A stretch of DNA of 27,545 bases from a virus. The position numbers and the translations under genes were made by a program. Where the stretch lies: positions 1 through 27,545 of IMG/VR virus record IMGVR_UViG_3300045738_001577. One strand, given 5' to 3'. Below, piece after piece: positions 15,035 to 26,159 of this stretch. A model generated the notes under the pieces. That model was not told the DNA's origin, made no database searches, and was given only the letters and a program-made list of their open reading frames with translations. The number at the start of each line of letters is the position of its first letter. Within the stretch, counting starts at the first letter, position 1.

Positions 15035-15253
15035 TCAGCGGGGCTGAGGGCCCGGCAAATCCCAGGACGAGGAGTCGCCTTCGAACGTCTGTTCGACAGA
15101 TCGCACGGCCGAGCCAATGGCTTCAGCCAGCTTCCAGCCCGGATAGGCGGCCGGGAGATCAGCCCTCAATCGTTTCCAGTCCGCTAGGGACATGGTGACC
15201 GTCAGCGTGATTTCGACCTTGCCGGGGTCGGCAACACGCATCTCGGTCTTCAT
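15035..15253 (-). CDS. Hypothetical protein downstream of HU gene, 72 aa
   Basis: ATG at 15253 overlapping the HU stop by one base (TGATG); a GTG at 15256 is the only alternative. The sequence KVEITLTVTMSLADWKRLRA followed by AYPGWKLAEAIGSAVRSVEQ suggests two beta strands and helices, and the C-terminus (WDLPGPQPR) is disordered. Cotranscribed with the HU gene. No family recognised. Its short strand-helix-helix layout could be a small DNA-binding or partner protein. Confidence 0.65.
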   Translation of the reverse strand: MKTEMRVADPGKVEITLTVTMSLADWKRLRADLPAAYPGWKLAEAIGSAVRSVEQTFEGDSSSWDLPGPQPR

Positions 15254-15525
15254 CACGCCACCGCGTCGGCGAGCGCCTTCGACGCCTTAAACTTCGCGAC
15301 CTTCCGGGCCGGGGAATGGAAGGGCTGCTTCGTCGCCGGGCTGATACCGGAGCGCGCCGCCTGCGCCTTTACCTTGAACGCGCCGACATCCGGGATCGAG
15401 ATATCCCGCCCGCCGCGCAATTCGACATGGATCAGGTCCGTCAGCGCCGCCAGCATCGCGCCGGCCGCGGTCTTCGTCACGCCCGCCTGACTGGCGATGT
15501 GCGCGGTGATCTCATTCTTGGTCAT
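15253..15525 (-). CDS. HU-family DNA-binding protein
   Basis: 90 aa, the normal length of HU/IHF proteins. Residues 1-50 have the HU pattern: MTKNEITAHIASQAGVTKTA, MLAALTDLIHVELRGG, then ISIPDVGAFKVKAQAARSGI. The DNA-binding arm reads SGISPATKQPFHSPARKVAK (the equivalent of 'GRNPxTGxxIxIxAxxxxxF') and the C-terminal helix is FKASKALADAVA. Several canonical arm residues differ (ISPATKQPF for RNPATGKPI), so DNA affinity may be altered. It would bend DNA in replication, packaging or repression complexes. The start at 15525 has an AAAGG upstream and sits 16 bases from a conserved hairpin and its own promoter. Confidence 0.9.
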   Translation of the reverse strand: MTKNEITAHIASQAGVTKTAAGAMLAALTDLIHVELRGGRDISIPDVGAFKVKAQAARSGISPATKQPFHSPARKVAKFKASKALADAVA

Positions 15526-15541: not shown

Positions 15542-15557
15542 GCCTCACAATCGAGGC
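15542..15557 (-). promoter_or_regulatory. Start-associated hairpin, copy a (HU gene)
   Basis: Minus strand reads GCCTCGATTGTGAGGC: 5-bp stem GCCTC/GAGGC with a six-base loop GATTGT, 16 bases before the HU start codon. It is identical to copies b and c. The 5' end lies 8 bases after a promoter-like CACGTT. Confidence 0.75.
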
Positions 15558-15565
15558 GCGCCCGG

Positions 15566-15594
15566 AACGTGGCGCGGGGCACTCATCAAGTAAA
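15566..15594 (-). promoter_or_regulatory. Candidate sigma70-type promoter for the HU gene
   Basis: On the minus strand TTTACT (15594-15589), a 17-base spacer, then CACGTT (15571-15566) and 8 bases to hairpin copy a. Geometry and the CAyGTT box match the rightward promoter at 15907. The individual boxes are weak matches; the shared layout is the main evidence. Confidence 0.45.
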
Positions 15595-15906
15595 GCGCCC
15601 GCGAGAGCCCCAGAGTGGATTTCCTTGGGGCAAATCCGGTGTTTCGCCAGCAGGGGCTTTATCCGACCCATTCCGAGCCGCGAGCGCGCGCTGAAGTAAC
15701 GCCGCTCAGATTTTTCGCGCCCAAAGTCGCGGATTATGATTGCCACGGCCGGTCGTGTCCTTTTTCGCCAATTTCTTAATCGACACCCGGCACCCCTTCT
15801 TCTCGCGCGCCCTCATGCGCGAGCGGGCACCGATCGGATGCTTTGCTTTCCCTTTCTGTGCGCCGATGCCTGCCTGTGATTTCTTGGCGAATACTGCGAA
15901 TGGCTG
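15595..15906. other. Divergent intergenic region with no convincing gene
   Basis: The core of the control region between the leftward HU gene and the rightward operon. It holds short open frames on the minus strand (15537-15746 with a GTG start; 15706-15999 with a Lys/Arg-rich product), but they overlap each other, the promoters or the rightward gene and lack ribosome binding sites. A 7-bp hairpin CTCGCGC/GCGCGAG lies at 15802-15823. The region is somewhat richer in A and T than the surrounding genes. Confidence 0.4.
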
Positions 15907-15935
15907 TTGACAGGTCGAATGTGCGGCCTCATGTT
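15907..15935 (+). promoter_or_regulatory. Candidate sigma70-type promoter of the rightward operon
   Basis: Consensus -35 TTGACA (15907-15912), a 17-base spacer, then CATGTT (15930-15935) as a moderate -10. Initiation would fall at about 15942, so hairpin copy b (15944-15959) would be the very 5' end of the transcript. It drives the gene starting at 15981. Confidence 0.6.
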
Positions 15936-15943
15936 CGGGATGC

Positions 15944-15959
15944 GCCTCGATTGTGAGGC
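15944..15959 (+). promoter_or_regulatory. Start-associated hairpin, copy b
   Basis: GCCTCGATTGTGAGGC, 21 bases before the ATG at 15981 and at the predicted 5' end of the mRNA. It is identical to copies a and c. Confidence 0.75.
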
Positions 15960-15980: not shown

Positions 15981-16358
15981 ATGACCAGCCTTGAGACACG
16001 TTCTGCGCTTCAGCTGACAGAGCTGCTGCAGGACCGCGCTACCGAGACCCGTGACAGCGGGCTCACTCCTGACCAGGCGATTGCGAACATCGAGGCCGGG
16101 CTTGTCCTGTCCCTGGCTCGCACCGCCACTGCCTTCCACCACGCTGACGAGGAATGGGGCGCGGCGCTCAGGACGGCGTTCGGCCGGCGCGCTACGGATG
16201 CCCGCTATTCCACCCTCGGGCAGGGCGAGCCCAGCAGCGAGCTGCGCGCCCTCTACGTGGCCCGCTACCAGGCGTATGCGGCGTGGAGTGCGGCACGGAG
16301 CCTGCCGGTAATGCCCGATCCGGTGGCGGGCATGCTGACCGTCAAGGCGGTGGCGTGA
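15981..16358 (+). CDS. Hypothetical protein, first gene of rightward operon
   Basis: 125 aa, almost entirely helical and Ala-rich: MTSLETRSALQLTELLQDRA, LTPDQAIANIEAGLVLSLAR, AALRTAFGRRATDARYSTLG, RALYVARYQAYAAWSAARSL. No Cys, no membrane segment, no catalytic motif. The first 45 residues could form a helical hairpin. It has no strong Shine-Dalgarno; its leader carries the hairpin instead. Directly coupled (TGATG) to a 26-codon frame. Function unknown; early accessory genes of this kind often include host-takeover or anti-defence factors. Confidence 0.7.
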   Translation: MTSLETRSALQLTELLQDRATETRDSGLTPDQAIANIEAGLVLSLARTATAFHHADEEWGAALRTAFGRRATDARYSTLGQGEPSSELRALYVARYQAYAAWSAARSLPVMPDPVAGMLTVKAVA

Positions 16359-16494: not shown

Positions 16495-16510
16495 GCCTCG
16501 ATTGTGAGGC
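16495..16510 (+). promoter_or_regulatory. Start-associated hairpin, copy c
   Basis: GCCTCGATTGTGAGGC, 21 bases upstream of the ATG at 16532; an AAGGA follows as ribosome binding site. No -35/-10 pair is evident upstream, so this copy probably lies within a longer transcript. Confidence 0.72.
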
Positions 16511-16531: not shown

Positions 16532-16687
16532 ATGACCACGGCCACGATTCCCGCCGGTTTCCTCGACGGCACGATGACCATTCCCGAGTTGCGGCGTGCC
16601 TGGGCGGATGCCCGCAAGCGTGTGTTCCGCAAGGCCCGGCGCCAGCGCATTGCGGCCAAGGAAGCGTTCCTTCGCTCCGCTCGCTGA
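16532..16687 (+). CDS. Small basic protein, 51 aa
   Basis: MTTATIPAGFLDGTMTIPEL, then a strongly basic helix RRAWADARKRVFRKARRQRI and AAKEAFLRSAR. The frame is short but is framed by a start-associated hairpin, an AAGGA and a downstream hairpin, exactly like its larger neighbours. The Arg/Lys-rich amphipathic helix suggests nucleic-acid or ribosome binding. No family recognised. Confidence 0.6.
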   Translation: MTTATIPAGFLDGTMTIPELRRAWADARKRVFRKARRQRIAAKEAFLRSAR

Positions 16688-16738: not shown

Positions 16739-16754
16739 GCCCCGATTGTGGGGC
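16739..16754 (+). promoter_or_regulatory. Start-associated hairpin, copy d (compensated stem)
   Basis: GCCCCGATTGTGGGGC, 20 bases before the ATG at 16775. Relative to copies a-c the fourth stem pair is changed from T-A to C-G on both arms while the loop GATTGT is unchanged, so base pairing is preserved. Confidence 0.74.
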
Positions 16755-16774: not shown

Positions 16775-17296
16775 ATGACCACCACCTTCCGCACCCACGA
16801 CGGCCGCACGCTCGAGCAGGCCGCTTCCGATCTCGTCCAGCGCGAGGTGCTGTGCTGCATGTCCAGCATGGTCGCGACGCTGGCGAACAGCGCGCATCGT
16901 GTCCCGCACGTTGATCACGACGACACAGCTCTGGCCGGCCTGACGCAACAGGCGTTCGAGCTTTCCGCTCCCGTGCTCGATTATGAGGACGCCGCGCGGG
17001 AAGCGGGTTGGGTCTGGTGCGCCAAGTCCGAGGCCTGGACGCACGACTGCGAGGAAGAAGCGTATTTCTCGGACGCTGAGGATCTGTGCGAGGCGCGGCA
17101 CCTCGACCCCTACGAGTGGGAGGTGTTCGAGCATTGGGCCGTCTCGACGTGGCTTGCCGAAAAGCTCCAAGCGGCAGGCGAGCGCGTCGATACCGACTTC
17201 GCCGGCCTGAACGTTTGGGCCCGCACCACGACCGGCCAAGCCATCAGCATCGACGCCGTGATCGAGCGGATCACCCGCGAAATGCACGCGGCCTGA
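16775..17296 (+). CDS. Acidic hypothetical protein, 173 aa
   Basis: Starts at the ATG at 16775, beginning MTTTFRTHDGRTLEQAASDL; an upstream in-frame start would overlap the hairpin. It contains REAGWVWCAKSEAWTHDCEE and a conserved-looking C-terminal half, VFEHWAVSTWLAEKLQAAGE then DFAGLNVWARTTTGQAISID. This C-terminal pattern recurs in hypothetical proteins of alphaproteobacterial prophages (from memory). The protein is acidic and Trp-rich. Its charge is compatible with a DNA-mimic or partner-binding role, but no function is known to me. A terminator follows directly. Confidence 0.8.
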   Translation: MTTTFRTHDGRTLEQAASDLVQREVLCCMSSMVATLANSAHRVPHVDHDDTALAGLTQQAFELSAPVLDYEDAAREAGWVWCAKSEAWTHDCEEEAYFSDAEDLCEARHLDPYEWEVFEHWAVSTWLAEKLQAAGERVDTDFAGLNVWARTTTGQAISIDAVIERITREMHAA

Positions 17297-17303
17297 TCGT
17301 GCC

Positions 17304-17332
17304 CGGCGGTGCCGCGTGTGCCGCCGTTTTTT
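17304..17332 (+). terminator. Rho-independent terminator
   Basis: CGGCGG pairs with CCGCCG around an 11-base loop and is followed by six T residues (17327-17332). It lies 7 bases after the stop at 17296. It is the only hairpin in the operon with a full T-run, so transcription of the next gene probably needs its own start or readthrough. Confidence 0.72.
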
Positions 17333-17353: not shown

Positions 17354-17369
17354 GCTGCGAATGTGCGGC
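17354..17369 (+). promoter_or_regulatory. Start-associated hairpin, copy e (diverged)
   Basis: GCTGCGAATGTGCGGC, 16 bases before the ATG at 17386. The stem is preserved by a G-C pair replacing T-A at position 4 and a G-T wobble at position 3. The loop GAATGT keeps the GA..GT frame. Confidence 0.62.
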
Positions 17370-17385
17370 AACCGTGAGAAATGCC

Positions 17386-17844
17386 ATGACCATCACTCGC
17401 AACCCCGACTTCTCAGATTTCGAAGTGCTGGCGCATCCATGCGCCGAACGGGAAAGCCGGATCTTCTATCGGCAGGAAGCGCACCGGGCCGAGCCTACGG
17501 GCGTCTGTTACCGGGCATATTCGCTGCAGCTCGCGCGGGGCTACTCGTCGCGGGATCTGGTGATCCTTGTCGAGCATGGCGGCGGCCGCGAGGCGGTGCA
17601 TCTGCACAGCATCTACGGCGTCGAAGCTGATTGGCTCCTGAGCATTACGGACGAACGGCGTCTCTATGCGGCACTGTGGACGCTCTACAAGACCGCGAGC
17701 GACGCCGACCGGGCTGCCCGGCATGATACGGCGACGGAATACGCGCAGGCGTTCGCAGAAGGCCGGCTTAAGAAGCGCCGCAAGTACGGGCGCGTGCGCG
17801 TTGAGATGGAGCCGCGCGCCGCTGCAGCGACGGAGGCCGCCTGA
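17386..17844 (+). CDS. Hypothetical protein, 152 aa
   Basis: Begins MTITRNPDFSDFEVLAHPCA; the frame is open further upstream, but that stretch crosses the terminator and hairpin. The central part (GVCYRAYSLQLARGYSSRDL, VILVEHGGGREAVHLHSI) looks like a beta-sheet domain. It is followed by helices DERRLYAALWTLYKTASDAD and TEYAQAFAEGRLKKRRKYGR, and a basic tail. It may be a small alpha/beta protein with a positively charged binding surface. Coupled by TGATG to the next gene. No family recognised. Confidence 0.72.
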   Translation: MTITRNPDFSDFEVLAHPCAERESRIFYRQEAHRAEPTGVCYRAYSLQLARGYSSRDLVILVEHGGGREAVHLHSIYGVEADWLLSITDERRLYAALWTLYKTASDADRAARHDTATEYAQAFAEGRLKKRRKYGRVRVEMEPRAAAATEAA

Positions 17845-18071: not shown

Positions 18072-18079
18072 TGCGACCC

Positions 18080-18106
18080 TGCCGGATGGGTGCGATCCGT
18101 CCGGCA
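18080..18106 (+). terminator. Long stable hairpin after the 75-aa gene
   Basis: TGCCGGATGGG pairs with TCCGTCCGGCA (11 pairs including two G-T wobbles) around a five-base loop TGCGA. It lies 8 bases after the stop at 18071 and 20 bases before hairpin copy f. No T-run. Confidence 0.45.
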
Positions 18107-18126
18107 CAGCCGCACCATGCCGTTAC

Positions 18127-18142
18127 GCCTCGACGGTGAGGC
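18127..18142 (+). promoter_or_regulatory. Start-associated hairpin, copy f
   Basis: GCCTCGACGGTGAGGC, 18 bases before a TTG start at 18161. The stem is identical to copies a-c; the loop is changed to GACGGT and still begins GA and ends GT. Confidence 0.68.
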
Positions 18143-18160: not shown

Positions 18161-18553
18161 TTGATCGACCCGTTTCGTTCCCGTGGCCCCGCGCCGGGCC
18201 CGTCGATATGCTCCGATGCGCAAGACGTGCGCCCTACGGAGAAAAGCCGCTCGCCCATGGTCCGGAACATTCAGGAATGGCGTCGCATGAGCGGCGAGCA
18301 GTTTTCGGCAGCGCTTGAGCAGGTGGGGCTTGGCCGGGCGGCGTTCGCCTGGATCCTCGGCACGCGATCGGAGCGTGTCACGGCTTGGGCGAAGGGTGCG
18401 GAGACGGTGCCCTTCTACATGGACGTGCTGCTTTCCCTGATGACGCTGCCGGGCGCGCGGGAGATGGTCCTACGCGTCGTCAGGCGGCAGCAGATCGGCG
18501 ACCAGCAGGCAGAGCGGGAGTTCGACGCCTGGGAGCGCGGACGCGATGGGTAA
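18161..18553 (+). CDS. Helix-turn-helix (XRE-like) protein
   Basis: 130 aa from a TTG directly after GGAGACACC and hairpin f, which decides this start. An ATG at 18257 would give a 98-aa protein. The first 30 residues are Pro/Ser-rich. From about residue 40, MSGEQFSAALEQVGLGRAAF, AWILGTRSERVTAWAKGAET and VPFYMDVLLSLMTLPGAREM match the familiar pattern of small alphaproteobacterial helix-turn-helix proteins ('F...L..LG.s...fA..LG.....V..Wa.G...vP'). It is a candidate regulator of this operon or of the lysis-lysogeny switch. Confidence 0.7.
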   Translation: MIDPFRSRGPAPGPSICSDAQDVRPTEKSRSPMVRNIQEWRRMSGEQFSAALEQVGLGRAAFAWILGTRSERVTAWAKGAETVPFYMDVLLSLMTLPGAREMVLRVVRRQQIGDQQAEREFDAWERGRDG

Positions 18554-26143: not shown

Positions 26144-26159
26144 ACCTCACAGTCGAGGC
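26144..26159 (-). promoter_or_regulatory. Start-associated hairpin, copy g, overlapping the ribosome binding site
   Basis: On the minus strand GCCTCGACTGTGAGGT, starting one base after the stop of the upstream gene and ending 6 bases before the GTG start. The 3' arm (GAGG) is itself the Shine-Dalgarno, so the stem would hide it. The loop is GACTGT; the outer pair is G-T. Confidence 0.65.

What the first reader, a model, noticed from the sequence alone, without database searches (positions are those of the whole stretch)
15542..15959. Mirror-image promoters that place the hairpin at the predicted 5' end of the mRNA
The leftward HU gene and the rightward operon have matching layouts: TTTACT-N17-CACGTT and TTGACA-N17-CATGTT, each followed by exactly 8 bases and then the same hairpin. 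Initiation would fall within about two bases of the hairpin, making it a 5'-terminal stem-loop on both divergent transcripts. The other copies lack such boxes and probably sit inside longer transcripts.
Basis: partly seen in the sequence, partly recalled or inferred. Interest (0 to 1): 0.5.

Follow-up and report, generated by a model that had tools for sequence, protein, structure and literature searches.

The report
Phage start-associated RNA hairpin regulon
Phages related to one of Methylobacterium appear to mark the starts of a set of their genes with one kind of small RNA hairpin, defined by its loop and not by its stem sequence; two of the copies in this window lie right behind a predicted promoter, so they would sit at the very 5' end of the messenger RNA.

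Summary
In detail: TTTACT-N17-CACGTT and TTGACA-N17-CATGTT, each followed by 8 bases and GCCTCGATTGTGAGGC, on opposite strands. The rightward promoter scores 9/12; the HU one 6/12, no better than two copies called promoterless, but both recur at the same spacing in a Methylobacterium sp. R2-1 prophage. The 5'-terminal place is not the defining feature. The window holds seven copies, all in gene sense, six of them 16-21 nt before a start codon. Related phages keep the loop (RAYNRY in 42 of 45 copies) and place but swap the stem: one prophage has five copies with five different paired stems. In 45 copies of ten phages, 37 pair cells changed on both sides (13.7 shuffled, 0/500). The loop-closing pair is G.U, A-U or A.C. 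This points to an RNA element of mRNA leaders rather than a DNA operator. A 30-51 aa Arg-rich protein, itself behind a hairpin, accompanies it in nine of the ten phages; searches with the protein led to four of them. Likely role (inferred): an RNA regulon beside the ribosome-binding site, with that protein as probable ligand. It resembles N/boxB and SAS/ESAS but fails their membership tests.

The parts
15542..15557 (-). Hairpin copy GCCUC-GAUUGU-GAGGC in the leader of the leftward HU gene, 16 nt before ATG
   Evidence: G001 homologue GCCTCGGTTGTGAGGC
15566..15594 (-). Predicted promoter of HU: TTTACT-N17-CACGTT (6/12)
   Evidence: same boxes and spacing in G001
15253..15525 (-). HU/IHF-type DNA-binding protein gene
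   Evidence: Pfam PF00216, E 6.4e-24
15907..15935 (+). Predicted promoter of the rightward cluster: TTGACA-N17-CATGTT (9/12)
15944..15959 (+). Hairpin copy 1 of the rightward cluster, predicted at about +3, 21 nt before ATG
15981..16358 (+). First gene of the cluster (125 aa, unknown)
   Evidence: no Pfam or PHROG match
16495..16510 (+). Hairpin copy 2, before the basic-protein gene
16532..16687 (+). 51-aa Arg-rich protein, candidate hairpin-binding protein
   Evidence: alignment; AlphaFold: helix 17-50, mean pLDDT 84.9
16739..16754 (+). Hairpin copy 3, compensated stem GCCCC/GGGGC
16775..17296 (+). 173-aa protein, unknown; a homologue (by eye) is also hairpin-led in G219
17354..17369 (+). Hairpin copy 4, GCUGC-GAAUGU-GCGGC
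17386..17844 (+). 152-aa unknown protein
   Evidence: no Pfam or PHROG match
18127..18142 (+). Hairpin copy 5, GCCUC-GACGGU-GAGGC, 18 nt before TTG
18161..18553 (+). 130-aa unknown protein
26144..26159 (-). Hairpin copy 6, GCCUC-GACUGU-GAGGU, 6 nt before a GTG start; its 3' arm could serve as Shine-Dalgarno
   Evidence: the G073 homologue also has a hairpin there, the G114 one does not

Best explanation
The hairpin is a cis-acting RNA element of phage mRNAs. It consists of a GC-rich stem of mostly 4-5 pairs of free sequence, a weak closing pair (G.U, A-U or A.C) and a loop A-Y-N-G (variants A, G), placed as a rule 14-23 nt before a start codon; in the window cluster it stands before all five starts that do not overlap the gene before. 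At HU and at the first rightward gene the predicted promoter is spaced so that the hairpin forms the 5' end of the transcript. I infer that the phage's 30-51 aa Arg-rich protein binds the loop and stem in trans and so switches translation, or the decay, of the gene set together; it would also control its own gene. Shown: copies, orientation, position, compensated stems, promoter spacing, association with the basic protein. Inferred: RNA folding in the cell, binding, level and sign of the control.
For: Covariation: 36 copies in 7 phages (25 distinct rows), 34 double-change cells against 13.9 shuffled (0/500); the four inner pairs are standard in 100 of 100 cells. 45 copies in 10 phages (29 distinct rows): 37 against 13.7 (0/500), score 0.791 against at most 0.231 for slid partners. 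G073 has five copies with five stems. Check without asking for pairing: the window has 21 loop cores, 6 with 4 outer pairs, the other 15 with at most 1; L205 has 16 cores, 5 with 4 pairs, 11 with at most 2. All 7 window copies lie in the sense of their gene, although the arms are symmetric. Closing pair in 29 distinct rows: G.U 13, A-U 8, A.C 8. The two overlapping starts in the window cluster (17844, 18546) have no hairpin. Basic protein: homologues in G001, G094, G073 (3 of 111 genus genomes), G365 and G219 (of 9 hits in 397 family genomes) and G542 (of 3 hits in 397 order genomes), all six with start-associated hairpins. Of 22 loci, the nine with the protein hold 43 hairpins against 5 with the loop reversed; four with a homologue of the 173-aa gene but no basic protein hold 1 against 1.
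Against: No RNA data. Folding energy alone is ordinary (z -0.06 to -0.92 in 8 leaders), and for copy 18127 another fold wins in its 53-nt context. Symmetric DNA sites would covary too. Part of the copies outside the window were found by scans that asked for paired stems. G002 has three hairpins but no basic protein seen in its 27.8-kb fragment. The match of G219 (E 8.1e-5) was no better than those of G307 or G341, which I set aside because they lie in another gene or frame; a hairpin before the G219 gene influenced that judgement. G525 has 4 hairpin-like hits against 0 reversed, scattered on both strands, with only a weak protein match. G542 has one 4-pair stem and two of 3 pairs. Not every free start has a hairpin: in G073 a gene starting near L205 13006 has none. 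In G114 and G094 the HU leader has another hairpin.
Confidence: 0.56

Rival explanations
1. The sites are DNA operators, like stoperators of cluster A (recalled) or ESAS of cluster K mycobacteriophages: a dimeric protein binds the double-stranded inverted repeat near promoters and gene starts.
For: Symmetric arms; promoter-linked at two copies; within the type-A and type-C genomes most copies share one stem, as operators would. ESAS are read as DNA sites or promoters by their authors.
Against: Arms differ at several positions between all five copies of one genome (G073), which a sequence-reading dimer would hardly tolerate; the asymmetric loop faces the gene in all 7 window copies; position is tied to the start codon and lies downstream of the promoter; most copies have no promoter box; the only departures from Watson-Crick inside the stems are one U.G (17354) and one G.U (outermost pair of 26144) (its 7 unpaired cells at column pair 1-16 are the flanks of the 4-pair stems of G114 and G094).
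Confidence: 0.13
2. nut-like sites: the basic protein is an N-type antiterminator that loads on RNA polymerase at each hairpin and carries it through terminators such as 17304-17326.
For: Arg-rich helical peptide resembling P22 N by eye (NAKTRRHERRRKLAIERDT, quoted from PMC11480772); 5-pair hairpin near the start of two divergent leaders, as nutL/nutR; a terminator inside the rightward cluster.
Against: One hairpin per gene start rather than one per operon; no boxA (0 exact, 17 one-mismatch hits against 16.3 by chance, none in the hairpin leaders); hexaloop not of the GNRA-like type; protein 30-51 aa, little room for polymerase-binding parts; no PDB match at E up to 10.
Confidence: 0.15
3. Generic 5' or intercistronic stem-loops that stabilise mRNA against RNase E or keep the ribosome site open; no dedicated ligand.
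For: Predicted 5'-terminal stem-loop with about 2 nt overhang at two copies; leaders 15944, 16495 and 16739 leave the start codon unpaired in the predicted folds.
Against: Does not explain the conserved loop and the closing pair kept weak, nor the narrow distance to start codons, nor the tie with one small basic protein.
Confidence: 0.13
4. Recently duplicated leader sequence without function.
For: The HU and rightward modules are a 63-nt 71% inverted repeat.
Against: Compensated stems and conserved position across diverged phages.
Confidence: 0.03

Closest known systems
SAS/ESAS of cluster K mycobacteriophages (PMC3203893) and cluster EF Microbacterium phages (PMC7302621)
   Same: Short repeated elements just before the start codons of a subset of phage genes, mostly in one orientation, conserved across relatives; ESAS consensus differs between subclusters.
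   Different: ESAS are 17-bp imperfect repeats with variable spacer, reported to hold promoters, and their departures do not support RNA pairing; here the departures are compensated, the loop is 6 nt, and no SAS stands out (10 hits at up to 3 mismatches against 11.1 by chance).
Lambdoid N protein / boxB RNA
   Same: Small Arg-rich helix and a short GC hairpin in phage leaders; two of them on divergent transcripts.
   Different: Other loop, no boxA, one site per gene, protein of only 30-51 aa; binding untested.
Microbacterium cluster EG start-associated inverted motif GATCAACCNNGGTTGATC (PMC7302621)
   Same: Repeated inverted motif at gene starts.
   Different: Fixed palindromic sequence with 2-bp centre; no loop-conserved, stem-free pattern in the passages seen.
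5' stabilising stem-loops of mRNAs such as ompA (recalled)
   Same: 5'-terminal hairpin with short overhang.
   Different: No defined loop sequence and not repeated before many genes (recalled).

Membership tests
Lambda-type N/boxB | Arg-rich RNA-binding helix in a phage protein | tested here: inconclusive
   Invariant R33, R36, R37, R39, A41, K43 in 8 homologues; helix 17-50 predicted; no PDB sequence match, no Pfam match at E up to 1 for 4 of the homologues, PHROGs only E 0.18 and 0.28, one member each
Lambda-type N/boxB | boxB with GNRA-like pentaloop | tested here: not met
   Hexaloop RAYNRY in 42 of 45 copies; the GNRA criterion is recalled, P22 boxB letters from PMC11480772
Lambda-type N/boxB | boxA beside boxB | tested here: not met
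   (lambda boxA letters recalled)
Lambda-type N/boxB | Antitermination of transcription | not testable with these tools
   needs an experiment
SAS/ESAS | 13-bp SAS at the ribosome-binding site | tested here: not met
SAS/ESAS | 17-bp imperfect repeat, variable spacer, upstream of SAS, pairing not supported | tested here: not met
   4-5-pair stem, 6-nt loop, compensated; definition
Rfam cis-regulatory RNA families | Match to a curated covariance model | tested here: not met
   window, E up to 5: three hits, none at a hairpin copy; six loci, gathering threshold: three tRNAs only
sigma-70 promoter followed by 5'-terminal hairpin | Transcription start within about 2 nt of the stem | not testable with these tools
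   spacing consistent; needs 5'-end mapping

The most novel reading that the evidence does not exclude
A new kind of phage RNA regulon: one loop-defined hairpin before the independent gene starts of a cluster, read by a phage-encoded basic peptide as small as 30 aa, which controls translation of the set (its own gene included). Stem sequences drift freely, so relatives keep the code in the loop and the closing pair alone.
Probability: 0.37. Interest if true: 0.82.

Novelty: new variant of a known kind. Interest (0 to 1): 0.62.

Why it matters
Start-associated repeats have been described in actinophages since 2011 with no settled function (PMC3203893, PMC11373665, passages). Here is a case in phages of Alphaproteobacteria in which the repeats covary as RNA and travel with one tiny basic protein, so that element and candidate ligand can be tested together. 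A 30-aa RNA-binding protein with a loop-only code would also be a useful RNA-protein pair.

Tried and rejected
Exact 16-mer in IMG/VR: 21 records; by my estimate about as many as chance gives; only L018 and L004 were recognised as relatives, the others were not studied one by one. Patterns with ATG in IMG/VR (5, 13 and 22 stretches): besides L018 and L004 the hits looked like chance (judged). L136 has the same matched sequence and downstream bases as the second hairpin of the tandem pair of the G073 prophage, so it is probably that prophage or a near relative; not checked by alignment. Genome-wide pattern: 38 stretches, one with three clustered copies, L055 = Methylobacterium sp. R2-1; the rest single. 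Genus pattern: 5 of 111 genomes hit, of which G001 is clustered and G073 is the tandem pair; the other three are single hits judged chance. Type-C pattern: 2 of 111, G094 and a single hit in G101 judged chance.

The loose scan also listed 4 further window hits and scattered hits in the other loci; I judged them chance because their stems and loops are unlike the set. Rfam: nothing relevant. Fold energies do not single out the leaders. Rhizobium phage RHph_N65 and IMG/VR loci L068, L069 have the 173-aa homologue without the element; L070 has one hairpin-like hit, control also one. Weak basic-protein hits: G307, G341, G352 lie in another gene or frame, G275, G224 look like chance; scans there gave 0 in L221 and L222 with the strict rule and scattered hits in L212-L214. 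Remaining rows, not in the totals of 43/5 and 1/1: L126, L128, L206, L208, L209 together 2 hairpins, 4 controls; L127 2 and 0; L221 0 and 1; L222 0 and 0; L231 4 and 0. Plasmid collection: no match for the first gene.

Literature: no paper held all of Methylobacterium, prophage, hairpin and start codon; 'methylobacterium phage' occurred in one of the 12 papers listed; the listings showed nothing of this kind. The library holds only freely licensed papers. I saw passages found by term, not whole papers: PMC3203893, PMC12699233, PMC7302621, PMC11373665, PMC11480772, PMC6023938; all other papers as search listings.

Full report
What the window is. The window is a 27,545-base IMG/VR virus record. 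Its terminase is 97% identical over 349 residues to that of a prophage in Methylobacterium sp. R2-1 (NZ_JACHWM010000022.1; G001 C22, loci L055, L125, L126), so a Methylobacterium host is likely. Further relatives: virus records G003 (L018, L129), G002 (L004, L127) and G114 (L168), prophages in genomes G094 and G073 of the same genus, and loci in G365 and G219 (family search) and G542 (order search).

The observation. The rightward promoter scores 9/12, the HU promoter 6/12; 0 of 4000 and 18% of random positions do as well, and two of the five other window copies also reach 6. HU is set apart only by TTTAC at -37, which G001 keeps. The rightward promoter is found at -37 in G001 and G003 too, and TTGAC stands at -36 in G114, G094 and G073, where spacer and -10 differ. 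G002 has it at -44 and so has G365. The 5'-terminal hairpin is thus a recurring design of the first leader in six of these phages, resting on spacing alone; no transcript end was seen.

The element. The window has seven copies: 15542-, 15944+, 16495+, 16739+, 17354+, 18127+, 26144-. All are in the sense of the gene behind them; six end 16-21 nt before its start codon, the seventh 6 nt before a GTG. The two cluster genes whose start overlaps the gene before (17844, 18546) have none. G001 has five copies, G003 five, G002 three.

Stems change, loop stays. In G114 and G094 the same place before related genes carries GGGC-AAYNRC-GCCC (one loop AAATGC), with TGGC/GCCA and CGGC/GCCG variants. In G073 five copies have five stems: GCTCC, GCGGC, GAGCC, GCCGC, GGCGC, each with its complement, around GATTGT or GATCGT. 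G365 has CCGC and CGCC around AATCGT and AATTGT; G219 six copies of CCGG, TCGG or CGCG type around AACGRT, and one with AACATG; G542 CGGC/GCCG and shorter GGC/GCC and GTC/GAC. On 36 copies of seven phages (25 distinct rows) 34 pair cells changed on both sides, 13.9 when shuffled, 0 of 500 shuffles reaching it. On 45 copies of ten phages (29 distinct rows) it is 37 against 13.7; the seventh G219 copy, the two short G542 stems, a G365 hairpin with loop CACGC and the tandem pair of G073 were left out of that count. Because some copies outside the window were found by scans that demanded pairing, I also listed every loop core without asking for pairs: the window has 21, of which 6 known elements have four outer pairs and the other 15 at most one; L205 has 16, of which 5 have four pairs and 11 at most two. 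The loop fits RAYNRY in 42 of 45 copies; the exceptions are the copy 17354, the HU copy of G001 and one of G094. The closing pair is G.U in 13 distinct rows, A-U in 8 and A.C in 8; A.C as protonated pair has the shape of G.U (recalled). Closure by G-C does not occur in the aligned copies, though the scans allowed it; counted separately it gave 9 start-associated hits over 22 loci, not examined further.

RNA rather than DNA. An inverted repeat read as DNA would also keep its arms complementary. Against that reading stand the asymmetric loop that faces the gene, the tie to start codons, the place downstream of the promoter, copies with quite different arms in one genome, and two wobble departures in stems (17354, 26144). 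Pope et al. used the same argument the other way for ESAS: departures there do not support pairing, hence DNA sites (PMC3203893, passage). Folding energies do not help: z between -0.06 and -0.92 in eight leaders, and copy 18127 prefers another fold in its context.

A candidate ligand. Gene 16532-16687, itself behind a hairpin, encodes a 51-aa basic protein. Its homologues share R..RR.R.A.K; in G073 the protein is 30 aa, hardly more than this stretch. AlphaFold gives one long helix, residues 17-50, mean pLDDT 84.9. In 111 genus genomes it occurs in three, G001, G094 and G073, all with hairpins. G073 had appeared as a single pattern hit, so it was not wholly blind. The family search gave 9 of 397 genomes (G001 and G094 again, G365, G219 and five weak ones), the order search 3 of 397 (G001 again, G542, G525). 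G365, G219 and G542 have start-associated hairpins. G219's match was no stronger than those of G307 and G341, which I set aside because they lie in another gene or frame; the hairpin before the G219 gene weighed in that choice. G275 and G224 look like chance, G525 is unresolved. Of the 22 loci, nine with the protein hold 43 hairpins by a strict rule, 5 with the loop reversed; four with a homologue of the 173-aa neighbour but without the protein hold 1 and 1. These phages are related, so this is association, not proof. G002 has the hairpins without the protein in the fragment held.

How it may work. The hairpin ends just upstream of where a starting ribosome sits, with a Shine-Dalgarno-like stretch between it and the start codon in most copies (by eye). 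A peptide bound there could hold the ribosome off or help it on; I cannot tell the sign. Antitermination is possible, since a terminator lies inside the cluster (17304-17326), but there is no boxA and one site per gene suits translation or mRNA decay better. In the window cluster all five free starts have the hairpin; in G073 at least one free start, near L205 13006, has none, and I did not check every start in the other phages.

Novelty. No Rfam family matches, no Pfam or convincing PHROG match for the protein, and the listings of the searches made showed nothing like it in phages of Alphaproteobacteria. SAS/ESAS are the nearest described arrangement, N/boxB the nearest mechanism; neither fits by membership. 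On checking, the confidence was lowered by 0.01 for the choice of G219 and the HU score.

Noticed in passing
window 17304-17326: Strong intrinsic terminator with T6 inside the rightward cluster, just before the 17354 hairpin; by eye G003 has one at the same place.
   Followed up: partly
window 15913-15928: Inverted repeat GGTCG-AATGTG-CGGCC inside the -35/-10 spacer of the rightward promoter, kept in G001 and G003 with pairing (one G.U in the window); possible operator.
   Followed up: no
window 18072-18126: Block GATGCGACCC...CAGCCGCACCATG before the 18127 hairpin is found, in part and by eye, also in G001, G002, G003, G073 and G114.
   Followed up: no
L168 4860-4985 (-), L089 800-890 (-): In G114 and G094 the HU leader keeps TTTACT but has another hairpin, CCCTC-CCTAY-GAGGG, 8-9 nt before ATG and holding the likely Shine-Dalgarno.
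   Followed up: partly
L206 6897-6952: Two elements in tandem, GCCTCGATCGTGAGGC and GCCGCGATTGTGCGGC, before a small gene elsewhere near the G073 prophage.
   Followed up: no
L055 6740-7350: In G001 the homologues of genes 16775 and 17844 are joined by a deletion that lacks terminator, hairpin 17354 and gene 17386.
   Followed up: no
L219 9230-9260 (-): The basic-protein gene of G365 follows a hairpin GCCGC-CACGC-GCGGC with another loop.
   Followed up: no
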